64,000 nucleotides of DNA from Bacilli bacterium. GTDB taxonomy: Bacteria; Bacillota_I; Bacilli_A; RF39; UBA660. The position numbers and the translations under genes are program-made. The stretch is taken from positions 1-64,000 of the forward strand of contig JAEENX010000025.1 of assembly GCA_016283935.1 (NCBI GenBank), read 5' to 3'. The notes beneath the pieces are model-generated. The model worked only from the letters and a program-made list of their open reading frames with translations, did not search any database and was not told the DNA's origin. This document shows positions 22,521-62,508 of this stretch, in pieces. Position 1 is the first letter of the stretch, and every line of letters begins with the position of its first letter.

Positions 22521-25169
22521 ATGCTAATAAGCGGTGTTTTGTCTTGGGGAGCAACTTTACTCCTTGAATTAATAATGATATTTTTTGATACTACTGCATA
22601 CGGTTTAGCCATAGTAGCAATTTCTATTTTTAACGGTTTAGCACGTATGGATTTCTTCTCGACTAAAGCAGGAGCTGCAATTTATACTGATATAACTAAT
22701 AGAATTTATGGCATTATTGGTATTATTATGATTTTCTTTTTCACTTATCAATTGATAATGCTTGTTATAAATCCGGATGGAGATTCTAAAACTTCATCTG
22801 CATTAGTAAAAAAACTTATCACTTCAGTTATAATGATTGCGTTCTTCCCAACACTTTACCATTACATGGCGGTGTTCCAAGAACATGTACTAACTGAAGG
22901 AACTATATTTGGTATTGTTACAGGAACTGCTTCTGGCGGTGATTCTGATTCGATGGGTAGAAATACAGCACTGATTGTTTATCTATCTATGTACCATCCT
23001 GCAGGTGGAGGATATCAATCTCTGGTTGATTCTGATTCGATGGATGAAAATGGAAATATAAGCGTTAAAACTGCACAAGAATGCTATGATGATATTCATG
23101 CAGATGGTGGCGAGGGAGCAAGCCTCGATACATGTCAAAAGTGGGTTGATGCTGTTACAGATTTTAAAAATAAATCAGCTAAATCTAGCATAGGAATTTT
23201 TGGAGGTATTACAGCGTTTACTTTAAATCTTGATTTGACACACACTGTGTTTGAAGAGGGCGGTAGCGAATACATGATAATCATCACATTTGTTTGTGGA
23301 TTCGTATTAGCTTGGTATTATATATCTTATGCAATAGATTTGGGTTACAGAACTATTAAATTGGGATTCTTACAAATTATAAGCCCTGCACCTTTAGTAA
23401 TGAGAATTTTCCCTAAAACTGATGGTGCATATAAAAAGTGGAGACATCAAATGTTTGTGACTTATATGGAAATATTTGTTAGAGTTGCAATTATTGCTTT
23501 CCAAATAGTTATTATTCAAGTAATACCAACTGTAATTAAAGGATTATTTTCAACTTTATTAATGAGCAAATTCTACATTGGATTTGGTGTAGTTGCAATG
23601 ATCTTTGGTATTATGAAGTTTGGTAAAGAATTACCAAAACTAGTTAAAGATATGTTCAGTAATGGTAGTGGATTACTTGATGGTATTGATTGGAAACCAG
23701 GATTCAGAAGAAGAATGAGAGCCGGTGGACAAGAACTTATTGGATATGGAAAGAAAGCCGCTGCTTGGACTAAGAAGAAAGTTGATGGAGCAATTTCACT
23801 TCCTGGTAAAGTTAAAAAATTCACTAGAGGTGTTGGCGGTATTATTGGTGGAGCAAAAACAGGAAGAAACTCATGGAATAATGCTAATCCAGCTGCTACA
23901 GGAATTAGTAAAGCTATTGGTAATATTGCTGGTAGCGTAAAAGGTGGAATATCTGCTTATAATGCATCACAACATATTAGTTCTAAGGCTACACCGGATC
24001 AAGCGCAAAAATTAATGCATGATGCTGCTTCAAGTGCTGGTGGCTCATTGAAAATTAAAAATCTTGCTCAAATGATTAAGGATCGTTCAATTGAATTGGA
24101 AGCTGAAGAAACAATGAGTACTCGTAGAAAAGTAGTTAGAGATGCAAGCAACAATAATAAAGCTCATACTGACTATTTTGATGAAAAAACAGGTGTAAAA
24201 GATATGATATCAAATATCGAAGACTTGAAAAATCAAGCACTAGATAATTTGGCTCAATCAGCGGATGGTACTGCAACAGGTTATACTGTTAATATGAATA
24301 CAGGTAAACGTGGAGAAGATACTGAATCATTTACAAGTGCTAAACAAATTATTGAATATTATGATCGAGCTAAACAAGATGCTCTTAAAGGAAAATTCGA
24401 GAAAAAAATTACTGATGGTATTACTGATCATAACTTTGACAAAATGGTTGAAGATATAACAGCAAGTGGTAGCAAATATGCAACTGATGTATTAAATATG
24501 GATCAATCAGATGATGTTAAGGACAAATATGCAAAAGCAATTTCTAATAAATTGTCTTCATCATTCTTTAAAGTTGCAAATGAAGTATTGAATACTAATT
24601 ATGATACTTCTATGGCACTTGATTCTATAAAGAGTACTAATCTTGAAAGAGAAACAAAGAATAGAGAATGTCAGTTGAAAAATTCTACTCTTGAAAGCGA
24701 AATAGATGCTTTACAAAAATCAATGGATCGTAAGGCTCTAGAAAAAAGATTTACAGATGAACTTGTTGGCACATATGCACCTGAAATTCTTAATGAAGAA
24801 GTAGATAAGGCTGTTAACGCTGAAATTAAAAATATTCAATCTCAAATAGCTGCTAAAAAGAGTGAAATTGCTAATAATACTAGTGAGATAAAAGATTTAT
24901 TAGATGAGAAGGCATCAACTTATATGAGTTTAGAAGATGCTAATAGATTGCTTGCTACAATTAATAGTGACCCTGAAAGTTTCTTTACAGCTCCATCATC
25001 TATGAGTGAAACAGAAGCTGAAGCTTTCCGCAAAGAAAGAGCAGAAGTTTTAAGAGATGTCAGGGAAATGGTTACTAATATGAACAAAGCTGCAAATATG
25101 GATATATTAACTGACTTTGAAGTTTATAGTGCTCCTGCTGAAGAAAGTTCTGGAGATAGTAAGAAGTAA
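22521..25169 (+). CDS. VirB6/TrbL-like polytopic T4SS membrane protein with long hydrophilic C-terminal half
   Basis: N-terminal TM segments typical of VirB6-like conjugation proteins, followed by ~480 aa Gly/Ala- and coiled-coil-rich region; immediately upstream of PrgI/VirB4 genes. Confidence 0.65.
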   Translation: MLISGVLSWGATLLLELIMIFFDTTAYGLAIVAISIFNGLARMDFFSTKAGAAIYTDITNRIYGIIGIIMIFFFTYQLIMLVINPDGDSKTSSALVKKLITSVIMIAFFPTLYHYMAVFQEHVLTEGTIFGIVTGTASGGDSDSMGRNTALIVYLSMYHPAGGGYQSLVDSDSMDENGNISVKTAQECYDDIHADGGEGASLDTCQKWVDAVTDFKNKSAKSSIGIFGGITAFTLNLDLTHTVFEEGGSEYMIIITFVCGFVLAWYYISYAIDLGYRTIKLGFLQIISPAPLVMRIFPKTDGAYKKWRHQMFVTYMEIFVRVAIIAFQIVIIQVIPTVIKGLFSTLLMSKFYIGFGVVAMIFGIMKFGKELPKLVKDMFSNGSGLLDGIDWKPGFRRRMRAGGQELIGYGKKAAAWTKKKVDGAISLPGKVKKFTRGVGGIIGGAKTGRNSWNNANPAATGISKAIGNIAGSVKGGISAYNASQHISSKATPDQAQKLMHDAASSAGGSLKIKNLAQMIKDRSIELEAEETMSTRRKVVRDASNNNKAHTDYFDEKTGVKDMISNIEDLKNQALDNLAQSADGTATGYTVNMNTGKRGEDTESFTSAKQIIEYYDRAKQDALKGKFEKKITDGITDHNFDKMVEDITASGSKYATDVLNMDQSDDVKDKYAKAISNKLSSSFFKVANEVLNTNYDTSMALDSIKSTNLERETKNRECQLKNSTLESEIDALQKSMDRKALEKRFTDELVGTYAPEILNEEVDKAVNAEIKNIQSQIAAKKSEIANNTSEIKDLLDEKASTYMSLEDANRLLATINSDPESFFTAPSSMSETEAEAFRKERAEVLRDVREMVTNMNKAANMDILTDFEVYSAPAEESSGDSKK

Positions 25170-25193
25170 TAGAATAAAAAGGAAGATGATAAT

Positions 25194-25511
25194 ATGAATC
25201 GATATTTAATTCCTGCGAACTCAAAAAGATCAATGTTGATCTTGAGTATGTTTGCACCAATTGATTTGATTATTGGTGGCGTAGGTGCATTTATTTCAAT
25301 GATCTTATTCTTTATAATAAGCGTTGAAACTACCACTGATATTTTAATAGTTTTGACACCGGCGTTGATTAGCGCTGCTATGATTATACCGGTGCCAAAT
25401 CATAGAAATGTTTGGCAATTAACTGCTAACATTTTGTACTATTTTACAAATCAAAGAAAATATAGATGGAGAGGTTGGTGTATGCTACATGGCGAAGAAG
25501 GAGAACAATAA
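25194..25511 (+). CDS. PrgI/VirB3-like T4SS protein
   Basis: ~105 aa, two TM, ...NHRNVWQLTANILYYFTNQRKYRWRG; position before VirB4. Confidence 0.7.
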   Translation: MNRYLIPANSKRSMLILSMFAPIDLIIGGVGAFISMILFFIISVETTTDILIVLTPALISAAMIIPVPNHRNVWQLTANILYYFTNQRKYRWRGWCMLHGEEGEQ

Positions 25512-26079
25512 TCAAGCTAAAAGTTGTGAAGATTGGTTACCAATAATTGATATTAAAGGTAGTTATATCGAAGTAAAAGGTGCTAATGCACTAGAAGGCA
25601 ATCAATATGTTACAGGAGTTAGAGTTGAGCCTAAAAATATATTCATTCAAGATGAATTAGTTCAATCTCAAACAATTCGTGGTTTAACTAATTTTTACAA
25701 CACACTAGATTTTGAATTCTGGTTAATGTGTTGCGATAGACCAGTAGATATTAACTTATATAAATCTCAACTTGAAATTATGTATGCTGATGCAACAAGT
25801 CAACAACAAAGAAAGTTAATTGCTGAAGATTTAAGAAAAGTTGATAAGTTTATTGGACCAGAAATTAATGCAGTTGATACAGAATTTTATATATTGTTTA
25901 AAACTTCTGTTAAACAAACTGAATTAATTCAAAAGAGAGTATCAAATATGATATCTGGTTTAGCAAGTGCTGGATTAAATTGTAGACAAATAACTGAAGA
26001 AGATATTAGAGTTTTATTAGATAGTATGTTTAATGATAGTGAAAGAGTAGAATTTGGAACGGTGATGAGTAATGTCTAA
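25489..26079 (+). CDS. TrsD/TraD-like protein (corresponds to VirB4 N-terminal region)
   Basis: DWLPIIDIKGSYIEVKG...; overlaps flanking PrgI and VirB4 genes. Confidence 0.65.
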   Translation: MAKKENNNQAKSCEDWLPIIDIKGSYIEVKGANALEGNQYVTGVRVEPKNIFIQDELVQSQTIRGLTNFYNTLDFEFWLMCCDRPVDINLYKSQLEIMYADATSQQQRKLIAEDLRKVDKFIGPEINAVDTEFYILFKTSVKQTELIQKRVSNMISGLASAGLNCRQITEEDIRVLLDSMFNDSERVEFGTVMSNV

Positions 26080-27865
26080 GAGTACATTAAAAAGTGAAAT
26101 CGCACCTAAGGGGTTAAATTTTAAAATTAGAGAATTTGATATTAGTGGTAAATACGCTACTATCCTTACAGTGTTAGAATTTCCTAAAGAAATAGGTCCA
26201 GGATATTTAAGTAATTTAACTTCAATTCCTGGAGTTAAAGTTGTTGTAAAACATACTCCAATTGACTTTGGAACAATGTCAAAAACTATCAATAAAGAAA
26301 TTGCTGAATTAAAACAAGAATATCAAAAAGAAAATGATTTAACATTAAAAGAGAGATTAAGACTAGACTATGAATCAATGGAACAATTCATTCAAATGTT
26401 AGCAGCAACAGGATCAAAAATATTCGACTTCCAATTGCATGTTATGATCACTGCTGATACTCAAGATGAATTAGATTCTAGAAAAGTAGAAATAAAGAAT
26501 TATTTAACTGGTATTGGACTTCGTGCAATACCTATGATGTTTGAACAAGAAAAAGTACTAAAGAGTATGGTACCTATCTTCCCAAAACAAGATGTTGAAG
26601 ATAGAATTGGTATACCTGTTCCTGCACCAACAGTTGCAGCTATGTATCCATTTGTTTTCGATAGTATCAAAGACCCAGGATTATCAAGTTTATTAGGAAT
26701 TGATTTCTCTGGTGGTGTTGTTCTATTTAACCAATTTGCTTATCAACAAAGAAGTGTTGAAAATAGACATAATGCTAATATGATTATTTTAGGTACATCT
26801 GGTAGTGGTAAATCTACTGCTGCTAAGTTATTACTTAGAGGACATATTAGAAATGGATATCAAATTGTTTGTATCGACCCTGAAGGTGAATTAGAATTCA
26901 TGGCTCAAAAGAATGAAGGATCATTCATCGATTTAGGTAAAGGTGGATCATATGGTATGATTAATCCATTAGAAATTGTTACAGATACAGATGAAGATGA
27001 TCCAAATGCAACAAGTGGTACAGCTGTACTTGCAAGTGCATTACAATCATTAAAAGCATTTATGAAATATTATTCTCCAGAAATTGAAGATGATGTTTTA
27101 CAAATGTTTAGTGAAGTAGTTCAAGAAACTTATAAGAGATTTGGTATTGATTTTAGTACTAATTTCAATACTTTCGTTCCTGAAAGTTTCCCAGTATTTG
27201 ATGATGTTTATGCTACTATTAAAGGTAAACTATTATCAATGCCTGAAGCTACTAGAGAAAGAGATGTAATGGAAAGACTTGAATTAAGAGTTAGACCATT
27301 CGTTAATGAATTAAGATATTATTTCAATGGACATACAACAATTAATCCTAATACAAACTTTATTGTATTTAGTATTAAGAATGTTATGAACAGTGATGAA
27401 AATATTAGAAATGCATTATTCTTCAACATATTAAAATATGCATGGAGTTTATGCTTAGATAGAAGTAAAAATACTGTAATGATGGTAGATGAAGCACATA
27501 TCTTATTACAAGGAAGTAATGAATTGGGTGCTGAATACTTAGCACAAATGCAAAGACGTGCTCGTAAGTATAACACTGGTACTATCATTATTACTCAACA
27601 ACCTACAGACTTTGCTGCTGATAAAGTTATTATGCATGGTAAAGCAATTTTCGATAATGCTGCTTACTATTTAGTAATGGGATTAAAGAAACAAGCTGTA
27701 GAAGATTTAAGTAAATTAATTGACTTAAATGAAAATGAAAAAGAAAGTATTAAAACGTATACTCAAGGTGAAGCATTATTTGTATGTGGATCTAGAAGAA
27801 TGCGTATTAATGTTGTATTAACTCAAGATGAGTTAGATTCCTTTGGCTCAGGCGGAGGACTATAA
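26072..27865 (+). CDS. VirB4/TrsE/TraE conjugation-type ATPase
   Basis: Walker A GTSGSGKSTAAK, Walker B NTVMMVDEAHILL, RRARKYNTGTIIITQQPTDF. Confidence 0.9.
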   Translation: MSKSTLKSEIAPKGLNFKIREFDISGKYATILTVLEFPKEIGPGYLSNLTSIPGVKVVVKHTPIDFGTMSKTINKEIAELKQEYQKENDLTLKERLRLDYESMEQFIQMLAATGSKIFDFQLHVMITADTQDELDSRKVEIKNYLTGIGLRAIPMMFEQEKVLKSMVPIFPKQDVEDRIGIPVPAPTVAAMYPFVFDSIKDPGLSSLLGIDFSGGVVLFNQFAYQQRSVENRHNANMIILGTSGSGKSTAAKLLLRGHIRNGYQIVCIDPEGELEFMAQKNEGSFIDLGKGGSYGMINPLEIVTDTDEDDPNATSGTAVLASALQSLKAFMKYYSPEIEDDVLQMFSEVVQETYKRFGIDFSTNFNTFVPESFPVFDDVYATIKGKLLSMPEATRERDVMERLELRVRPFVNELRYYFNGHTTINPNTNFIVFSIKNVMNSDENIRNALFFNILKYAWSLCLDRSKNTVMMVDEAHILLQGSNELGAEYLAQMQRRARKYNTGTIIITQQPTDFAADKVIMHGKAIFDNAAYYLVMGLKKQAVEDLSKLIDLNENEKESIKTYTQGEALFVCGSRRMRINVVLTQDELDSFGSGGGL

Positions 27866-27883
27866 TATCTGTGAGGTGAGCTT

Positions 27884-30196
27884 ATGAAAAATAAAAAAAT
27901 GAATAAGATGTTATTGCTAAAGAATATAGGAAAAGTATTGTTAGCAATAACACTTTTTTCAGTTATAGTATATGTTCCAAATAAAGTATATGGAGCCGGT
28001 TTTGAGTATAAAGATTTTGATTGGGATCAATTCCAAGCCAAAAGAAATTATTTCTGGGATGGGGAATGTAGTGATGGTGATACAGAATGTAAGAATTCTG
28101 TTCTAGAATCACAAAAGAAATTTTATACAAAACTATATAAAGCATTAGCTGCATATGATAGAAAAATAGGTAAGGATGGTCAAAGATTACATATAAATGA
28201 TAATATCATTTTAGAAACAATATTCTTTGAACTTACTCATGAAGTTTTTGAAGATAGTGGAACAGGTTATCAAGACAGTTTAAAATCTAAATCACCAGGT
28301 TATACCGTAGATGAAACAAGTGATGGTTCAGCAGCAGCTGATATTGATTACAATACTGTTGATGAACATTACTTTGAAAAAGAAACAGACTCAATTGAAA
28401 CATTAGTTGATAATATGATTGCATATGAAACTATTTGTTGGGGTATTGTTGGAGATGCTACTGCTGTAACTGATTCTGAAGGTGGTACATATTATACATG
28501 TGAAGATGGACATATTCCTAAAGAAGTTTATTTAATAGGTCAAGCTTGGGGATGGAAATGTACTGATAAATTAAGTGATAATGAATTAGGATTCTGGGAA
28601 TATTTTGGATCTAAATTAATGCATGATGTTGCATTAAACAGATTAATATCTCAAGTATTCTTCTTAGATAAATTAATTGTTGATCAAGCTTATGAAGATT
28701 GTAAAAATGCTCAAGGATATGAAAATGGTACATATTATGAATTTACAGATGATAGATATGTAAGTACTGATAGATATTTTGATTTCTTAAAAGATAATAA
28801 CTATTTTGATAAAAAAGCTCATTTACAAAGATATTTTAAAGAAGATGTTTTAGATAAGGCTACAGAAAAATATGGTCAAAAAGTAGATTGTTTAACAAGT
28901 GACGTATGTGATAATTCACTTGATTCAATTGAAGGTGGATATGAAGAATTTTATGGAAATATAGTAGAAGATAGATTAGAAATCATTAAATATATTATTT
29001 CAAATTTAAGATCATATGGAATTGAAATTTCTTATATGGATGATTTTGAATCGGAATTAACTGAAATAAGTAATTCTCAACAAAGAAAGAGTTTCTATTG
29101 GCCAATTGGTAGTGATGAAACTGAAGAAAGAAATGGTAGAACATTTGCTGATAAAGAACCAGCAAGTACTACTATTGTTAGAGAATATGGTGAAAATGCT
29201 AATCCAAGAACTGGAGAAATACAAAAACATTATGGTATAGATATTCAAGGTGTTGAAGGTTCTACTAATGTTATTGCTGTTTATTCAGGTACAGTATTAT
29301 CAGTATACAATTCTTGTACAAAAGGTAATTATTCATGTAATGATGGATATGGAAATACAGTTATTATTTCACATCCAAATGGTGATTTTACTGTATATGG
29401 TCATTTAGCAACTATTCCTTCTAATATAGGACCTGGATATGATGTTGTTAAAGGTGAAGTAATTGGTAAAGTTGGTTCTACTGGTGATACTAATCAAGCT
29501 GCTCTTCATTATGAATTAAGAGTAGGTGGAAACTCAGTAGATAATACAGTTAATCCAACTGATAATACAGATCCAAGTAATCCTAGACCAACAATTCCAT
29601 CTGGAGATTTCTCAGTACATGAAACTTCATTAACAAAAGATCAATTTTGTTCTGGATTAAGAAGTTATTGTAATAGTCATAGCTGTGGAGTATTCTCAGT
29701 AAATTGTGAGACAGTATATGATACTTCAATTAGTTCAAATGTTAACCCTGAATTAGTTGTAGCAAGAGCTATGTGTGAAGGTTTCTCACCTGGTGGTTCT
29801 ACTAATAACTACTGGGGTATTGGATGTTCTAATACTGGTGGTGGAAGAGACTGTCGTTCATACGGAAGTTTAGCTGCTGGTATTCAAGGATTTGCTTCTG
29901 TAGTAGCTAAATATAATACAGCAAGTGATATGATGAAAAAATATGCATATATTGGAAAATATTGGTATAATCCAGGATCATGGTCTACAGGTGGATGTAT
30001 TTATTTCAACTATATTAGACAATATATGAGTACTGGAAGACAATCAACTGTTAATAGTGTATGTAATAGTAGTAGTCATTGCGATACAAGTGGTGGTGTA
30101 TGTACTTCTACAACTGATGAAGACCAAACAGCATATGCTACATGGCAAGTTGCTAATAAAATGGGTCCAATTAGATCTAATATATGGGGATTATAG
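27884..30196 (+). CDS. T4SS-associated cell-wall hydrolase: M23 (LytM) domain plus C-terminal glucosaminidase/lysozyme-like domain
   Basis: Signal/TM at N-term; HYGIDIQG, VYGHLATI, ALHYELRVGG; C-term NPELVVARAMCEGFSPGGSTNNYWGIGC... Confidence 0.75.
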   Translation: MKNKKMNKMLLLKNIGKVLLAITLFSVIVYVPNKVYGAGFEYKDFDWDQFQAKRNYFWDGECSDGDTECKNSVLESQKKFYTKLYKALAAYDRKIGKDGQRLHINDNIILETIFFELTHEVFEDSGTGYQDSLKSKSPGYTVDETSDGSAAADIDYNTVDEHYFEKETDSIETLVDNMIAYETICWGIVGDATAVTDSEGGTYYTCEDGHIPKEVYLIGQAWGWKCTDKLSDNELGFWEYFGSKLMHDVALNRLISQVFFLDKLIVDQAYEDCKNAQGYENGTYYEFTDDRYVSTDRYFDFLKDNNYFDKKAHLQRYFKEDVLDKATEKYGQKVDCLTSDVCDNSLDSIEGGYEEFYGNIVEDRLEIIKYIISNLRSYGIEISYMDDFESELTEISNSQQRKSFYWPIGSDETEERNGRTFADKEPASTTIVREYGENANPRTGEIQKHYGIDIQGVEGSTNVIAVYSGTVLSVYNSCTKGNYSCNDGYGNTVIISHPNGDFTVYGHLATIPSNIGPGYDVVKGEVIGKVGSTGDTNQAALHYELRVGGNSVDNTVNPTDNTDPSNPRPTIPSGDFSVHETSLTKDQFCSGLRSYCNSHSCGVFSVNCETVYDTSISSNVNPELVVARAMCEGFSPGGSTNNYWGIGCSNTGGGRDCRSYGSLAAGIQGFASVVAKYNTASDMMKKYAYIGKYWYNPGSWSTGGCIYFNYIRQYMSTGRQSTVNSVCNSSSHCDTSGGVCTSTTDEDQTAYATWQVANKMGPIRSNIWGL

Positions 30197-30205
30197 GAGG
30201 ATAAT

Positions 30206-30742
30206 ATGAATTTAAAAAAATTAAGTGATTCAGAAAAAAAAGTATTAACCTTCTGGGCTATCTTAGGTGTATTAATTATTTCGGGACTACTAATTTTTAA
30301 ATTAGTAGCTCCTGATTCATTTGATAGATTATTTAAACTTGGAGAATATGATAAAAAGTATAAATTAGTTCAAGATAGAACACGTTATTATACTGTATCT
30401 AATTCATTAATTAAGTATTATGAATATTCTAGCAATAAAGATTCGCAAGCTGTATTTGATATATTAAATGATAATTATAAAAAGAATAATAATATTAATT
30501 CTTCATCAGATATTAAATTTAAAGAAGATCAAACTAATTTAACATTTAATTCTAGATTAATGTGTCAAAAGAAAATAAAAAAAGGTGTATACAGTTTTTA
30601 TGTATCTGGATTTGAATCAAATCCAAATGTATCTGGAAGATTAAATGTTGCTTATTATGAAGTAGTATTAGATGATAATAATTATTTATTCAGTGTTCAA
30701 CCAATAGATGAAAAAACATTTGGAGGTGAATGTCATGAATAA
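30206..30742 (+). CDS. Bitopic membrane protein, possible VirB8-like
   Basis: Short cytosolic N-term, one TM (FWAILGVLIISGLLIFKLV), ~140 aa extracytoplasmic domain. Confidence 0.5.
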   Translation: MNLKKLSDSEKKVLTFWAILGVLIISGLLIFKLVAPDSFDRLFKLGEYDKKYKLVQDRTRYYTVSNSLIKYYEYSSNKDSQAVFDILNDNYKKNNNINSSSDIKFKEDQTNLTFNSRLMCQKKIKKGVYSFYVSGFESNPNVSGRLNVAYYEVVLDDNNYLFSVQPIDEKTFGGECHE

Positions 30743-31274
30743 ATTTAAAGACTATGTTAAAAAGAATTATTTATTTGTAGGACTAATAGTAGTAGTAATC
30801 ATTATATTTACCATATTAGTCGTAGTTAGAATAAATAATAAAAATAATTTAAAATTTGAACCTATAGAAGGTGACGTTGCATATGAAATAAAAAAACATA
30901 ATGCAAATGAATATAAAATCATATCAGTAGAAGATCAAGATATAGCTATAGCTTATTACAAAGACTGGATATATTTAGTTGTTAATAAGCCAGAAGAAGC
31001 TTATCAAAAATTATCAAAAAAATCTTTAAAGAAATATGATACATATGAAAAGTTTAAAGAATGGGTTGATAGATATAAAACTGTTAAAACAAAAGATAAT
31101 ACTTTAACAGGTTATTCATTCAAACAAAATGGTGAACATAATGAAATACTTGTATCATCAAGTGAAAATATGAGATATCGTTTTTATGAATATTCTGTTT
31201 GGAATTATAAAGTTGAAATTATAGGACAAGAAAGAAAAACAGATAAAACAACTATCGTGACAAAGAAACACTAG
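30735..31274 (+). CDS. Bitopic membrane protein, NTF2-like/VirB8-like candidate
   Basis: One TM (YLFVGLIVVVIIIFTILVVV) then YYKDWIYLVVNKPEEAYQKLSKKSLKKYDTYEKFKEWVDRY; overlaps the previous gene. Confidence 0.5.
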   Translation: MNKFKDYVKKNYLFVGLIVVVIIIFTILVVVRINNKNNLKFEPIEGDVAYEIKKHNANEYKIISVEDQDIAIAYYKDWIYLVVNKPEEAYQKLSKKSLKKYDTYEKFKEWVDRYKTVKTKDNTLTGYSFKQNGEHNEILVSSSENMRYRFYEYSVWNYKVEIIGQERKTDKTTIVTKKH

Positions 31275-31310
31275 TTGTATAACAAAATAAACTGAAAGGA
31301 GGTGTATCTT

Positions 31311-32810
31311 ATGCCATTACCTGTCGTTGCTGCCGGAGTTGCTGCTGCTGGAACTGCTGCTGGAACTGCCGCTGCTGGAACTGCCGCTGCTGGAACTGCT
31401 GCTGCTGGAACTGCCGCTGCTGGAACTGCCGCTGCTGGAACCGCTGCTGCTGGAACAACCGCTGCTGCTGGAACAACCGCTGCTGCTGGAACAACTGCTG
31501 CTGCTGGATCAACTGCTGCTGGATCAACCGCTGCCGCTGGATCTACTGCTACTGCCGGAGGAACTGCTGGAACAACTGCTGGAGCTAACGTTGGTACTCA
31601 AGCTGCAGGTCAAGGATTAACACAAGGTGCTAATGCTGGTACTCAAGCTGCAAATGCAGGAACTCAAGGTTCTCAACAAGTTGCACAACAAGCACAAAAT
31701 CAAATAAAGAATGAAGCTCAACAAAAAATAGAAGATGAAGCTAAGAAACGTGTTCAAGATGAAGCAAAGAAAAAAGCAGAAGAAGAACAACGTGAAAATC
31801 TTAAAGACGAGATAAAAGATAGAGTTCAAGATGAATTAAATAAAGAAGATGAAGAACAAGAACAAGTAGAAGAAGATACATCTCCAAGTAAATCTCAATC
31901 TTCAAATGGCAGAAAGCCATATGAAAGAAATAACAATCAAACAAGAACTCAAAGAAGAACAAATCAAAGACAAGAAGGTATTAGAAACGGACAACAAACT
32001 AGTGATAGTGAAGAATCCGATGATCAAGATGAAGAACAAGAACAAGCGGATCAACCACAAACACCAGAACAACAAAAACAACAAAAACAACAAAAGAAAG
32101 TAGAAAGAAAAGAAAAATTCAAAAATTTTATAGAGAAGAGATTAACATTAAAATTTTTGGGTCCAATTATTTTTGGAGTAATTTGCTTATTTATAATCCT
32201 TATGATGGTACTTATACCTATTTTTACAGTTGTTGGTGGCTTCATGGAAGTAACTGATAAAATACAAGAATGGGTTAGTAATGTTGTTGAAGATGTTGAA
32301 CAAGTTGGAGAAACAAACTATACTGCCAAAGAATATGATGTTAATGGATTATTAGCTAAAGTACCTAATTATGATTCATTAAGTTCAACAAGAAAGTCAA
32401 TATTAAATGCTGCTGCTGAAGTAGTAGCTGCAGGATATCCATATAATTGGGGTGGCCATCCATCTGGTCCTGGATTAAGTGGAGTTCCTTCTACAGGTTT
32501 AGACTGTGCTGGATTTGTTCAATATTCATTGTGGACTGGAACTGGATCATCACCTGGATATTTAACTACTGGTACAATTAGTAGTAAGATTGGAACTGAT
32601 TTTATTGAAATAGATTGTATTCATGCTAAACCTGGTGATATTGGATTAAAACGTAGAGGTGGTAGTACAGAAGGTTCTACTAACCATACAGGTGTATATG
32701 CAGGAAATGGATTATGGTTTCATGCTGCATCTAAAAAGACAGGTATAGTAATGGGTACATATAGTAATTTTAAAATATGTTTAAGATATAAAGGGGTGCC
32801 AGAAAATTAA
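31311..32810 (+). CDS. NlpC/P60 cysteine peptidase with (AAAGT)n N-terminal low-complexity repeat, charged linker and TM
   Basis: C-term LDCAGFVQYSLW ... HAKPGDIGL ... NHTGVYAGNGLWFHAAS; TM FLGPIIFGVICLFIILMMVLIPIF. Confidence 0.8.
   Translation: MPLPVVAAGVAAAGTAAGTAAAGTAAAGTAAAGTAAAGTAAAGTAAAGTTAAAGTTAAAGTTAAAGSTAAGSTAAAGSTATAGGTAGTTAGANVGTQAAGQGLTQGANAGTQAANAGTQGSQQVAQQAQNQIKNEAQQKIEDEAKKRVQDEAKKKAEEEQRENLKDEIKDRVQDELNKEDEEQEQVEEDTSPSKSQSSNGRKPYERNNNQTRTQRRTNQRQEGIRNGQQTSDSEESDDQDEEQEQADQPQTPEQQKQQKQQKKVERKEKFKNFIEKRLTLKFLGPIIFGVICLFIILMMVLIPIFTVVGGFMEVTDKIQEWVSNVVEDVEQVGETNYTAKEYDVNGLLAKVPNYDSLSSTRKSILNAAAEVVAAGYPYNWGGHPSGPGLSGVPSTGLDCAGFVQYSLWTGTGSSPGYLTTGTISSKIGTDFIEIDCIHAKPGDIGLKRRGGSTEGSTNHTGVYAGNGLWFHAASKKTGIVMGTYSNFKICLRYKGVPEN
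31335..31590 (+). repeat. 15-nt tandem repeat tract (consensus GCTGCTGGAACTGCC)
   Basis: Consecutive AAAGT/TAAAGT peptide units encoded by near-identical 15-18-nt units. Confidence 0.85.
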
Positions 32811-32811
32811 T

Positions 32812-33441
32812 ATGAAAAAGATTAATATATTAGTAATTATTCTATTATCTTTTATTTTTATTCCAACAGTTAAAGCAGAAAATTTCACAAAATTTACTGC
32901 TAGATCTAACTTTTCAAATAATATTAATGTTTCAGCTATACAATCAGTTGTAGCATTAATATCTGTGCCTGGAGAAGAAGATTTTAGAGAAATAGAATTA
33001 ACAAATACAAATTTATTTAATTATGAAACCACTGATATGCCAACTAATGCAGAATTTGATAGTGCATATGTTAAAGGTGATAGAGGTGGAGATTTTACAA
33101 TAACTGGTAGATTAAATAAATCAGGCAGTACAGCTACATTAGAAATAATGGTTTCAGTTTATACAACAACTACAACAACTACAACAACAAAAGTTCAAAC
33201 ATCTAAGTTAGTTGGAGATGATGATATCATTATTATTGATGATAATGGGAATGTAAATACAACTGAAGGAACTAATCCTTATGAAACAGTTGTTATTACA
33301 TCATCATCCGCTTCAATAAGCGAAGCTGCGCAAAATCGTAAGACTATATATAGAATTGTATTATTAGCAGTTGGCTTATTATTAGCAGTAGTAATATTTA
33401 TGATAATTGTAAAGGCAATAAGAACTTCTAACTTAATGTAG
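32812..33441 (+). CDS. Secreted/anchored protein with signal peptide, Thr tract and C-terminal TM
   Basis: MKKINILVIILLSFIFIPTVKAENF signal; YTTTTTTTTTK; TM IVLLAVGLLLAVVIFMIIV. Confidence 0.6.
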   Translation: MKKINILVIILLSFIFIPTVKAENFTKFTARSNFSNNINVSAIQSVVALISVPGEEDFREIELTNTNLFNYETTDMPTNAEFDSAYVKGDRGGDFTITGRLNKSGSTATLEIMVSVYTTTTTTTTTKVQTSKLVGDDDIIIIDDNGNVNTTEGTNPYETVVITSSSASISEAAQNRKTIYRIVLLAVGLLLAVVIFMIIVKAIRTSNLM

Positions 33442-33506
33442 CAAAATGTGTATATTTATACTATAATTTTTAATAGAGGATACTAAAAGAAAGTGAGGGG
33501 ATAATA

Positions 33507-36254
33507 ATGAAATTGAATATTAAAGTTACTTCAAAAGATTTAACTGTTTTTATCATATTTTCTGTAATATTATTTTATGTATGTTCAATAACTGTACTTA
33601 ATATTATGTCTATGGTAAATGAAGGCGAATTCGCTGGTTTAAATCCATTTCCTGCATTATTACCTCCATATTTATTATTTACTTTAGTAATATTCTTTTC
33701 TGTTGAAATAGGTATAATTTTAAGCGTAAAAGATACTATCTTTGATATGTCTGATGGTATTGGTTTCTCAATTGGAGAAAAAGAATCTAAAGGATATTCT
33801 AGATGGTTTACTGAAAAAGAAATGAAAAAAGCCTATAAGATTTATAAAGTAGGTGTTAAAGATAAAGATGCTGAACAAGCAGGTGTAGTATTTATCAATG
33901 ATGGTAAGGATATGTGGGTTGATGATTCTGAAAACCATACATTAGTAATTGGTACTACTGGATCTGGTAAAACATCAGCTGTTGTTAATCCTTTGATTTA
34001 TTCTTTAATTAAACATAGAGAATCAATGGTTATAACAGACCCTAAAGGTGAAATTCATGCAGGATTTGCAAATTTACTTAAAGATAGAGGATATAAGATA
34101 GTTGTATTAAACTTCCGTAATCCAAATTTAGGTAATGCGTGGAATCCTTTAACATTACCATATAGATTATATAAAGAAGGTAATGTTGATAAAGCATCAG
34201 AATTAATTGATGACGTTGCATCAAATATTATTAAAGATAAAAAATCTCAAGATCCATTCTGGGAAAATTCATCTGCAGACTACTTTGCAGGTTGTGCTCT
34301 TGGATTAATGGAAGATGGATCAGAAGAAGAATGTAATATTAATTCAATCAACTATATGACTACAGTTGGTGAAGAAAAAATAGGTAGTAAAACATTTATT
34401 CAAGAATATTTCACTATGAAAGGTGAAAATTCAAATGCTTATGTATTTGCATCTAATACTATTAATTCACCTAATGAAACTAAAGGTGGTATTTTAGCAG
34501 TATTTAGATCAAAGATAAGATTATTTGCATCACGTGAACAATTATCTGAAATGTTATCACATTCAGATTTCGATATGGAAATGATTGGTAAAGAACCAAC
34601 AGCTGTATTTATTGTTATACATGATGAAAAGACAACATACCATGCTTTAGCAACAATCTTTGTTAAACAATGTTATGAAACATTAATTGCTGTTGCACAA
34701 GCTAATGGTGGACCACTACCAGTTAGAACAAATTTCATTCTTGATGAGTTTGCGAACATGCCAGCGTTAAAAGACGTTACAACAATGGTAACTGCAGCTC
34801 GTTCAAGACAAATAAGATTCACATTCATCATCCAAAACTTCTCACAATTAAATGAAGTATATGGTAAAGAAGATGCTGAAACAATTAGATCTAACTGTCA
34901 GAACTTAATATATATCTTAACAACTGAGTTATCAGCTCTAGAAGAAATATCTAAGTTATGTGGTGAAGTTAAGAGTAAGAAAGATGATAAGACTGAATCT
35001 CATCCATTAATTACTGTATCTGATTTACAAAAATTAAAGATGAATGAGGTTATTATTTTAAGAAATAGATTACATCCTTTTAAGACTGTATTAAAACAAG
35101 GATTTAATACAGACTGGGGTGATGCAGAATTTGATAAACATGCATCATTTACTGAAAGAGATAAAGTAGAAATTAAATACTTTGATATTAAGAACTTTGT
35201 TACTGTTAGAAAACGTAGTAAAGGTGAAGATATAACTCAATCTAAATCACCATTCGGAGGCGGAAGTCCATTTGGAGGAAGTAGTCCTTTTGGAGGAGGT
35301 TCAAGTCCATTTGGTGGATCAAGTCCATTTGGAGATAATTCGGGTGGAGGCGCAAGAATTCCATCATTTGAAGAATTCATGGCTCAAAGAAATAAAGAAA
35401 AGGCTGAAAGAGCTAAGATGGAACAAAATAAACCTGCAGTACCAAAACCTAACTTTGATATTGATGATTTAGTTAAGAGAATTGATGCTAAGATAGCAGA
35501 ATTAGAAGAAGAACAAAGAAAAGAAGAAGAGGAACAAGCAAGAAAACTTGGTGGTGCACCTGTTGCATCAACTCCTGAAACTCCATTTATTCCTTCTAAA
35601 CCTATAGAAGAAAAGAAAGAAGTTTCTCAACCATTTGTTGAAAAGAAAACATTTGTTGATCCAATCTTGGATGAAGAAGTTCCAATTCCTCCTGAAAATA
35701 ATACAGGTATTAAGACATTTGAAGATATTATTAAACAAACTAATGCTAATATTCCTGATACAAAGAAGGAAGAACCTAAACCAAGTGTAATGATTAATAA
35801 TCCAATTGAAGAAGTTCCAAGTACACCAGTATTTGATACTGATCCAACACCAATCAAAGATGTTGATTCAAGTAGTTTATCTGGTATTGTAGATCCAACT
35901 AATATGACATTTGAGTCATTTATGAATAGTAATGGAGCAAATATTCCAGTTAATAATAATGTTCCAAATAACATTAATATTAATGAAGCTTCAAGTGTTT
36001 CTTCATTTGAAACACCTACAGAACCAATTGCTCCTGATGTACCAACTCAAGTTGTTAATCAAGATACAGTTGTTACACCCGTTATTCATCAACCACAACA
36101 ACAAGTTGTTATTAATACAACAGTTAAGAAACCAATTCAAACTCAAGTACAAGTTGATACTGGTATTAATAATATTAAGGTTGATACTCAATCTCAAGTT
36201 GTTTCACAACCTAAAGACGATGAAGATTTCTTCGATGATTTCTTTGATGAATAA
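33507..36254 (+). CDS. VirD4/TraG-type coupling protein with long disordered C-terminal tail
   Basis: N-term TMs; Walker A IGTTGSGKTSAVV; TDPKGEIH; ILDEFANMPALKDVTTMVTAARSRQIRFTFIIQNFSQL; SPFGG repeats afterwards. Confidence 0.9.
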   Translation: MKLNIKVTSKDLTVFIIFSVILFYVCSITVLNIMSMVNEGEFAGLNPFPALLPPYLLFTLVIFFSVEIGIILSVKDTIFDMSDGIGFSIGEKESKGYSRWFTEKEMKKAYKIYKVGVKDKDAEQAGVVFINDGKDMWVDDSENHTLVIGTTGSGKTSAVVNPLIYSLIKHRESMVITDPKGEIHAGFANLLKDRGYKIVVLNFRNPNLGNAWNPLTLPYRLYKEGNVDKASELIDDVASNIIKDKKSQDPFWENSSADYFAGCALGLMEDGSEEECNINSINYMTTVGEEKIGSKTFIQEYFTMKGENSNAYVFASNTINSPNETKGGILAVFRSKIRLFASREQLSEMLSHSDFDMEMIGKEPTAVFIVIHDEKTTYHALATIFVKQCYETLIAVAQANGGPLPVRTNFILDEFANMPALKDVTTMVTAARSRQIRFTFIIQNFSQLNEVYGKEDAETIRSNCQNLIYILTTELSALEEISKLCGEVKSKKDDKTESHPLITVSDLQKLKMNEVIILRNRLHPFKTVLKQGFNTDWGDAEFDKHASFTERDKVEIKYFDIKNFVTVRKRSKGEDITQSKSPFGGGSPFGGSSPFGGGSSPFGGSSPFGDNSGGGARIPSFEEFMAQRNKEKAERAKMEQNKPAVPKPNFDIDDLVKRIDAKIAELEEEQRKEEEEQARKLGGAPVASTPETPFIPSKPIEEKKEVSQPFVEKKTFVDPILDEEVPIPPENNTGIKTFEDIIKQTNANIPDTKKEEPKPSVMINNPIEEVPSTPVFDTDPTPIKDVDSSSLSGIVDPTNMTFESFMNSNGANIPVNNNVPNNININEASSVSSFETPTEPIAPDVPTQVVNQDTVVTPVIHQPQQQVVINTTVKKPIQTQVQVDTGINNIKVDTQSQVVSQPKDDEDFFDDFFDE

Positions 36255-61807: not shown

Positions 61808-62173
61808 ATGAATAGCATTAAACAAGGTAGAATCAGTTCTCAATTAATGAGAGAACTTTCAAATATAATGTTATTAGAAGCAAGAGATGAAACTTTAAAA
61901 CATGTTACTATCACAGGATGTGAAGTTACAAATGATTTATCTGTTGCAAGAATCTATTATACTTATATGGGTGAAGAAGATATTAAAGAAGTAATTAAGA
62001 ATTTAAAAGTAGCTGCTCCTTATTTAAGAACAGTACTTGCATCTAAAATTACTGATTTAAGAAAAATGCCTGAATTAAGATTTATCTATGATAATTCAGT
62101 TGAATATGGTAAACATATTGAAAATATCATAGAAAAAATTCATGAAGATGATGAAGAGATTAATGAAGATTAA
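61808..62173 (+). CDS. rbfA: Ribosome-binding factor A
   Basis: SSQLMRELSNIMLLEARDETLKHVTITGCEVTNDLSVARIYYTYMG; MPELRFIYDNSVEYG. Confidence 0.9.
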   Translation: MNSIKQGRISSQLMRELSNIMLLEARDETLKHVTITGCEVTNDLSVARIYYTYMGEEDIKEVIKNLKVAAPYLRTVLASKITDLRKMPELRFIYDNSVEYGKHIENIIEKIHEDDEEINED

Positions 62174-62211: not shown

Positions 62212-62240
62212 TTGAATAATTTTATGTAATATATTATAAT
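62212..62240 (+). promoter_or_regulatory. Promoter of candidate antitoxin RNA
   Basis: TTGAAT - 17 nt - TATAAT, consensus -10. Confidence 0.7.
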
Positions 62241-62246
62241 ATTTAT

Positions 62247-62336
62247 AGAAAAAGGGAATACTTAACGGCGCAATGTTGAGTACTCACCTCATATTTGGTG
62301 ATGCACTTAATCCATTGGATTGAGTGCTTTTTCTTT
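62247..62336 (+). ncRNA. Candidate ~90-nt antisense (type I antitoxin-like) RNA
   Basis: Promoter at 62212-62240; terminator GCACTTAATCC-att-GGATTGAGTGC-TTTTTCTTTT; lacks a convincing ORF; overlaps the 3' end of the toxin transcript. Confidence 0.6.
62302..62336 (+). terminator. Terminator of candidate antitoxin RNA
   Basis: GCACTTAATCC-att-GGATTGAGTGC + T-rich tract. Confidence 0.75.
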
Positions 62337-62346
62337 TATAAAATCA

Positions 62347-62424
62347 TTATCTTATGTATAATAATAGTATAAGTAGAATGATGATAATGATTAATGCAAA
62401 GATTAGAAAATCTTTCTTGTTCAT
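62347..62424 (-). CDS. Candidate 25-aa hydrophobic toxin peptide MNKKDFLIFALIIIIILLILLLYIR
   Basis: ATG (62424-62422) preceded by GGAGGTGATGAT; reads to TAA at 62349-62347; basic N-term, one long hydrophobic helix, basic C-term; below the ORF-track length cutoff. Confidence 0.65.
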   Translation of the reverse strand: MNKKDFLIFALIIIIILLILLLYIR

Positions 62425-62479
62425 ATCATCACCTCCTTTCGGAGGTAAGCACTCAACTGTTAAGTATTCCCTAATAAAA

Positions 62480-62508
62480 TTATATCATTTAGCGAACACA
62501 TGTTCAGC
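62480..62508 (-). promoter_or_regulatory. Minus-strand promoter for the small peptide
   Basis: Read on minus: CTGAAC - 17 nt - TATAAT, TSS predicted near 62472. Confidence 0.6.
62494..62507. promoter_or_regulatory. LexA/DinR (SOS) box
   Basis: CGAACACATGTTCA versus Bacillus-type consensus CGAACRNRYGTTYC; perfect GAAC-N4-GTTC core, overlapping the -35/spacer of the minus promoter. Confidence 0.65.

What the first reader, a model, noticed from the sequence alone, without database searches (positions are those of the whole stretch)
62429..62446. Toxin SD is sequestered in a perfect GAAA-tetraloop hairpin
In the minus-strand RNA, ACCUCC-GAAA-GGAGGU (read from 62446 to 62431) is a perfect 6-bp stem whose 3' arm is the SD of the 25-aa ORF. 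Intrinsic SD occlusion is a known theme of type I toxin mRNAs.
Basis: partly seen in the sequence, partly recalled or inferred. Interest (0 to 1): 0.6.

Follow-up and report, generated by a model that had tools for sequence, protein, structure and literature searches.

The report
Self-locking bacterial toxin mRNA with antisense antitoxin
The hairpin is real and is one lock in the messenger RNA of a tiny membrane-peptide toxin-antitoxin module that is present, unannotated and in many copies, across uncultured gut Bacilli, with the same RNA control device driving at least two different toxin peptides.

Summary
Observation confirmed: minus-strand RNA 62446-62431 is ACCUCC-GAAA-GGAGGU; it extends to 8 bp (62448-62429), and the SD precedes a 25-aa hydrophobic ORF (62424-62347). 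But it is one part of a larger device. The predicted mRNA's 5' and 3' ends are complementary (13 + 14 bp around the ORF); its start codon is hidden by the ORF's own codons; and a ~85-nt antisense RNA with its own promoter and terminator lies opposite the 3'UTR.

90 non-redundant relatives from one family of uncultured gut Bacilli show this is selected. The end-to-end pairing, the 3'UTR hairpin and an alternative leader:3'UTR pairing covary (0/500 shuffles reach the observed double-change counts). Wobble direction shows the antisense RNA's hairpins are kept on the plus strand. Synonymous codon choice hides the AUG.

A covariance model of the antisense RNA also finds the same cassette driving an unrelated 30-aa Lys-rich peptide, and orphan antitoxins. 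No Rfam, Pfam or NCBIfam family covers it.

Best reading: a new type I toxin-antitoxin family, working like AapA/IsoA (end-to-end lock) plus TxpA/RatA and BsrG/SR4 (3'-overlapping antitoxin). The exact SD-hairpin geometry is not conserved, and the GAAA loop is also part of a 13-nt SD. Toxicity and expression are untested.

The parts
62479..62506 (-). Predicted promoter of the toxin mRNA (TGAACA-16-TATAAT, TG before the -10); start predicted at 62472/62471
   Evidence: relatives have a perfect TATAAT at this place in 46 of 84
62459..62471 (-). 5' arm of the end-to-end pairing LDI1 (GGGAAUACUUAAC)
   Evidence: 100% inverted repeat with 62254-62266; 91.6% of cells paired, 10 of 13 pairs with double changes in 90 relatives
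62444..62457 (-). Leader segment GUUGAGUGCUUACC: LDI2 partner of 62275-62288; its first 9 nt can instead pair with the 3'UTR hairpin arm 62319-62327; its ACC is the anti-SD
62429..62448 (-). SD-sequestering hairpin UUACCUCC-GAAA-GGAGGUGA (8 bp; 6-bp core 62446-62431)
62428..62440 (-). Extended SD GAAAGGAGGUGAU, 13 nt complementary to the canonical 16S rRNA 3' tail
62347..62424 (-). 25-aa hydrophobic toxin ORF, MNKKDFLIFALIIIIILLILLLYIR (family M.KKDFLI..LIIIIFLL)
   Evidence: diversity at codon positions 1/2/3 = 0.31/0.08/0.44
62421..62430 (-). Start-codon region GAUGAUAUGA, paired with ORF codons 12-15 (62390-62380)
   Evidence: P(AUG unpaired) 0.028 against 0.61 for synonymous shuffles
62380..62390 (-). 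ORF-internal segment UCAUUAUCAUC that hides the start codon
62303..62327 (.). 3'UTR hairpin of the toxin mRNA, and on the + strand the terminator hairpin of the antitoxin RNA
   Evidence: T-run on the + strand only (7.5 against 2.9 T in 10 nt over relatives)
62275..62288 (-). 3' arm of LDI2/LDI3 (GGUGAGUACUCAAC)
62254..62266 (-). 3' arm of LDI1 (GUUAAGUAUUCCC), followed by UUUUUCU (62253-62247), predicted end of the toxin mRNA
62212..62240 (+). Predicted promoter of the antitoxin RNA (TTGAAT-17-TATAAT)
   Evidence: relatives have a 5/6 or 6/6 -10 here in 76 of 88
62254..62336 (+). Antitoxin RNA, about 85 nt, complementary to the toxin 3'UTR only; 5' end predicted 62247-62254
   Evidence: covariance model R1 match, 72.5 bits (the window was in the training set)
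62259..62282 (+). 5' hairpin of the antitoxin RNA (8 bp, loop about GGCGCAAU)
   Evidence: 64 G:U against 2 A:C cells, i.e. kept on the + strand

Best explanation
It is a chromosomal type I toxin-antitoxin module. The minus strand makes a ~225-nt mRNA for a single-helix hydrophobic peptide, presumably membrane-acting. The mRNA is kept untranslatable by layered RNA structure. (1) As soon as the leader is made, the SD is closed in a hairpin. (2) Once the ORF is made, its codons 12-15 cover the start codon. (3) Once the 3'UTR hairpin is made, its arm can hold the leader. (4) When the transcript ends, the 3' end takes the leader over in a 13+14-bp end-to-end pairing. Trimming of the 3' end would remove the last lock and yield a translatable form. 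The plus strand makes an ~85-nt antitoxin RNA complementary to most of the 3'UTR but not to the SD or ORF. It would bind through its 5' hairpin loop and terminator loop and neutralise the mRNA by RNase III cleavage and/or by holding the 3'UTR arms so that the anti-SD stays on the SD. Shown here: sequence complementarity, covariation, wobble-strand asymmetry, codon bias, promoter and terminator conservation, family-wide occurrence. Inferred: transcription, toxicity, activation by trimming, RNase III, membrane target.
For: Toxin-mRNA region folds at -79.8 kcal/mol, z -9.6, 0 of 200 shuffles as low. 117 distinct members were extracted. With an E<=1 toxin profile, 199 of 291 genomes of the family match; with E<=1e-4, 161 of 288 in the order, up to 12 copies per genome. 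End-to-end pairing: 87.2% of cells paired, 211 double-change cells against 83 shuffled, 34-45% paired when slid. 3'UTR hairpin: 158 against 56. Leader:hairpin-arm alternative: 92.9% paired, 94 against 33. Anti-SD A/GCC fits SD GGU/GGC (Fisher p 0.001) and 3' arm GGU/GGC (p 0.0004). Ensemble: LDI1 P>0.8 in 92% of members; the leader is on the 3' arm in full-length RNA and on the hairpin arm when the 3' end is missing. Antitoxin hairpins kept on the plus strand: 64 G:U against 2 A:C and 21 against 4. Both promoters and both T-tracts conserved. AUG hidden by codon choice, family p 1e-6. Same cassette with an unrelated 30-aa peptide. RNase III gene present.
Against: No transcript, toxicity or binding data. 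Promoters and ends are predicted. Relatives are not independent, so shuffle counts, Fisher and Wilcoxon p overstate significance. The SD hairpin in the window's register is not supported by covariation across the whole family. The antitoxin does not reach the SD or ORF, so how it blocks translation is inferred. In the energy model the SD is mostly paired in every form (mean P unpaired 0.31 nascent, 0.26 shortened, 0.20 full-length), so 'activation by 3' trimming' is not clearly reproduced.
Confidence: 0.86

Rival explanations
1. The ORF is a non-toxic small membrane protein whose mRNA is simply riboregulated (for example a stress-induced small protein with an antisense regulator).
For: Toxicity was not tested; small single-helix membrane proteins are common.
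Against: Extreme silencing (SD, AUG and end-to-end locks) together with a dedicated antisense RNA, many diverged copies per genome, tandem copies, decay of the peptide end while the antisense part stays intact, and the same cassette driving an unrelated hydrophobic peptide are typical of toxin-antitoxin modules, not of a housekeeping small protein.
Confidence: 0.09
2. The inverted repeats are the ends of a small non-autonomous transposable element (MITE) and the RNA structure is a by-product.
For: 14-nt perfect terminal inverted repeats 62253-62266/62459-62472; multi-copy; the rbfA-truB junction is empty in three congeners.
Against: The repeats differ between copies in one genome (window GGGAATACTTAAC, L002 GGGACACTTAAT, L007 AGAACGCATTAAC) but stay complementary within each copy; the ORF shows codon-position constraint; both promoters sit just outside the repeats; no target-site duplication is visible by eye.
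Confidence: 0.03
3. The SD hairpin is a chance or purely SD-driven feature: a long SD (GAAAGGAGGUGAU) happens to face a CCTCC.
For: GAAA is part of the 13-nt SD; the window's hairpin register is not conserved family-wide.
Against: Only 1 of 13 GGAGG-ATG sites in the window has CCTCC upstream; leaders of 85 relatives are structured (mean z -2.1) and their SD is less accessible than with shuffled leaders (0.31 against 0.42).
Confidence: 0.04
4. Within the same TA reading, the end-to-end pairing opens rather than closes the SD: its last three pairs take the anti-SD (ACC/GCC) away from the SD, so full-length mRNA would be the active form and the antitoxin would close the SD by freeing the anti-SD.
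For: Three-way covariation of the anti-SD with SD and with the 3' arm. Formally like SR4, which lengthens the bsrG SD helix from 4 to 8 bp (PMC7430163).
Against: Ensemble calculations keep the SD slightly more paired in full-length RNA than in shortened forms; the AUG-hiding helix remains.
Confidence: 0.15

Closest known systems
aapA/IsoA (Helicobacter pylori and other Epsilonproteobacteria), PMC6733600
   Same: Small toxic peptide gene, cis antisense RNA, stable 5'-3' end pairing of the primary transcript, successive SD-hiding hairpins including one formed with the ORF, several copies per genome.
   Different: Unrelated sequences and phylum; here the antisense RNA covers only the 3'UTR, including the 3' arm of the end pairing; the end pairing mainly holds the leader upstream of the SD rather than the SD itself; an extra leader:3'UTR-hairpin pairing exists.
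bsrG/SR4, txpA/RatA, bsrE/SR5 (Bacillus subtilis), PMC7430163
   Same: Short hydrophobic toxin; SD hidden in a short helix (txpA 5 bp, bsrG 4 bp); convergent antitoxin overlapping the toxin mRNA 3' end; RNase III decay.
   Different: No family-profile match; toxin mRNA and antitoxin are shorter here; no end-to-end pairing is described in the passages read; prophage-borne there, between housekeeping genes here.
Clostridioides difficile type I modules (CD2517.1-RCd8 etc.), PMC6563280
   Same: Convergent overlapping toxin and antitoxin RNAs, many copies, hydrophobic peptides.
   Different: Toxins of 34-53 aa with Lys-rich C-terminus; CRISPR-array or prophage association; those toxins were not aligned directly to this family here.
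hok/Sok (from own knowledge; 5'-3' interaction cited in PMC6733600)
   Same: Inactive full-length mRNA through 5'-3' pairing.
   Different: Hok acts through mok coupling and a Sok RNA over the 5' part of the mRNA; unrelated sequence.

Membership tests
Type I toxin-antitoxin system (general) | Gene for a short hydrophobic peptide, under codon-level constraint | tested here: met
   22-28 aa, 117 members, codon-position diversity 0.31/0.08/0.44
Type I toxin-antitoxin system (general) | Antisense RNA antitoxin encoded opposite the toxin mRNA | tested here: met
   By sequence only: promoter, terminator, covarying hairpins with plus-strand wobble bias; expression not tested
Type I toxin-antitoxin system (general) | Peptide is toxic and the RNA neutralises it | not testable with these tools
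   Needs an expression experiment
Type I toxin-antitoxin system (general) | Primary toxin transcript not translatable (SD and start occluded) | tested here: met
   Predicted only:
aapA/IsoA family | 5'-3' end pairing supported by covariation | tested here: met
aapA/IsoA family | Sequence homology of toxin or RNA to known AapA/IsoA | tested here: inconclusive
   No Rfam, Pfam or NCBIfam match of any kind and restriction to one group of Bacilli argue against; AapA/IsoA sequences were not aligned directly
txpA/bsrG group | Antitoxin overlaps the 3' end of the toxin mRNA | tested here: met
   62254-62336 lies 3' of the stop at 62347
txpA/bsrG group | Toxin matches a known toxin profile (Pfam, NCBIfam) | tested here: not met
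MITE | Shared terminal repeats among copies in a genome | tested here: not met
   repeats differ between copies

The most novel reading that the evidence does not exclude
One RNA control cassette, a self-locking mRNA frame plus an antisense RNA confined to the 3'UTR, acts as an interchangeable device that has been coupled to at least two unrelated toxin peptides. It works as a three-way switch: one leader region pairs in turn with the SD, the 3'UTR hairpin and the 3' end, and the antitoxin acts by capturing the two 3'UTR partners.
Probability: 0.45. Interest if true: 0.75.

Novelty: new variant of a known kind. Interest (0 to 1): 0.62.

Why it matters
It adds a large type I toxin-antitoxin family, with no matching Pfam, NCBIfam or Rfam entry, to a group of uncultured gut Bacilli where I found none described in the few literature searches made. 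It gives a natural set of well over a hundred diverged copies with which co-transcriptional locking of a toxin mRNA can be tested by covariation, as was done for aapA3 in H. pylori. If the same RNA cassette really serves unrelated peptides, the RNA, not the toxin, is the conserved unit, and RNA-model searches are the way to find such systems.

Tried and rejected
Rfam, Pfam, NCBIfam, PHROGs, PADLOC and PDB gave no family. The window-register SD hairpin on the family alignment was not supported; subgroups differ in register, so per-sequence folding was used. The 16S tail was not found in 11 congeners, so SD strength uses the canonical tail. Phage, plasmid and viral-contig searches were negative or weak. 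Homology of the two toxin types was not supported (hhalign probability 18%). MITE reading rejected. Hit L032 and several low-scoring loci were chance matches to AT-rich sequence and left out of the alignment; L076, L127 and L140 kept in it have a toxin but a replaced leader, which lowers the pairing percentages slightly.

Full report
What was claimed and what is there. On the minus strand 62446-62431 reads ACCTCC-GAAA-GGAGGT, and two more pairs extend the stem to 62448/62429. It precedes ATG 62424 of a 25-aa ORF, MNKKDFLIFALIIIIILLILLLYIR. G/C-rich 6-bp stems are very rare here (2 in 64 kb), and no other GGAGG-ATG site has a CCTCC upstream.

Surroundings. The locus lies between rbfA (61808-62173) and truB (start 62529), identified by Pfam. 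Three congeners have rbfA and truB adjacent with only a short gap and no module. Perfect inverted repeats 62253-62266 and 62459-62472 flank the locus, and the segment folds at -79.8 kcal/mol, z -9.6. The minus-strand promoter ends at 62479 and a plus-strand promoter at 62240. The only terminator-like site found is on the plus strand at 62303-62327. This gives two convergent transcripts: a toxin mRNA from about 62471 to 62247, and an antisense RNA from about 62250 to 62337.

Relatives. A DNA search of the genus found a 94% orthologue (L009) and diverged paralogues. A toxin profile matched 199 of 291 genomes of the family at E<=1 and 161 of 288 in the order at E<=1e-4. In a class-wide sample it matched 23 of 395, all in this family. 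A DNA pattern found at least 116 stretches in GTDB genomes; the listed records are uncultured Bacilli and Tenericutes MAGs, mostly from animal guts, including Candidatus Onthousia and Coprosoma. None were found in viral contigs. From fetched loci, 117 distinct members with consensus M.KKDFLI..LIIIIFLL were extracted and 90 non-redundant ones aligned.

Structure tested by covariation. End-to-end pairing (27 pairs): 87.2% of cells paired against 78.6% in shuffles, 211 double-change cells against 83, and only 34-45% paired when slid. 3'UTR hairpin: 158 against 56. The leader segment GUUGRGUGx also pairs with the 5' arm of that hairpin in 92.9% of cells, with CG, GC, AU and UA at one position. The anti-SD bases covary both with the SD and with the 3' arm. 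The SD hairpin in the window's register is not supported family-wide. Per-sequence folding shows the leader is nevertheless structured in 88% of members (z below -1) with SD bases mostly paired. Ensemble calculations place the leader on the 3' end in full-length RNA and on the 3'UTR hairpin when the 3' end is absent. This gives an order of events: SD hairpin, ORF:AUG helix, leader:hairpin arm, end-to-end pairing.

Start codon. In the window the AUG is paired with codons 12-15, P(unpaired) 0.028. With the same protein but shuffled synonymous codons it is 0.61. Over 85 members the shift is consistent, Wilcoxon p about 1e-6, overstated because members are related.

Antitoxin. On the plus strand the predicted RNA has a 5' hairpin and a terminator. 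Its G:U cells outnumber A:C cells 64 to 2 and 21 to 4, which means these hairpins are maintained as RNA on that strand. The end-to-end and leader:hairpin pairings show the opposite bias, toward the toxin strand. The -10 box is conserved on both sides, and the T-run follows the hairpin on the antitoxin strand only.

SD strength. The window SD is GAAAGGAGGUGAU, 13 nt complementary to the canonical 16S tail, while 36 window genes reach at most 9. The GAAA 'tetraloop' is therefore also SD. It may leave a toehold for the ribosome in the loop (inference).

Second toxin. A covariance model of the antitoxin found two loci in this genome and, across the class, loci lacking the KKDFLI peptide. Several carry a 30-aa peptide such as MKKRIFVIKVLRYLSIILLLQIIMIIVIKK in the same frame of leader, hairpin and 3' arm, also in a genome of another family. 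A profile of it matches 27 of 395 class genomes. It has no Pfam or NCBIfam family and no clear homology to the first peptide. Others are orphan antitoxins with the toxin start or leader lost.

Mechanism. The AapA model (inactive full-length mRNA, metastable SD hairpins during transcription, 3' trimming, antisense RNA) is described in PMC6733600. The B. subtilis model (SD in a 4-5 bp helix, 3'-overlapping antitoxin, RNase III decay, SR4 lengthening the SD helix) is in PMC7430163. The present system combines features of both. RNase III is encoded. What is shown is sequence and evolutionary constraint; expression, toxicity and the antitoxin's action are inferred.

Verdict. The hairpin is real and is part of a device under selection. 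It is not, by itself, the conserved lock. The locus is most likely a member of a new type I toxin-antitoxin family with a modular RNA cassette.

Noticed in passing
L320, L321, L323, L329, L331, L332 (G298, G207, G109, G053, G578): The same RNA cassette encodes an unrelated 30-aa Lys-rich hydrophobic peptide (MK.K.FIIKVLRL..IILLLL...VIKK); 27 of 395 class genomes, three GTDB families.
   Followed up: partly
L324, L325, L326, L328, L330, L333, L334; L012: Antitoxin/3'UTR part intact but toxin start or leader lost: orphan antitoxins or decay products.
   Followed up: no
A3 columns about 370-395, just downstream of the toxin mRNA end (upstream of the antitoxin start): Most members carry a short palindrome (CAAG-n-CTTG, GAAG..CTTC, GTAAA..TTTAC) next to the antitoxin -10 box; the sequence varies but stays palindromic (78 of 90 at least 4 bp, no chance control run). 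Possible operator or hairpin.
   Followed up: partly
L068, L087, L101, L106, L134: Tandem copies of the module roughly 330-850 bp apart.
   Followed up: no
window 22521-36254: By eye, a cluster of conjugation-like genes (VirB4-like ATPase, VirD4-like coupling protein, cell-wall hydrolases) in a 1.3-Mb genome; may be an integrated conjugative element.
   Followed up: no
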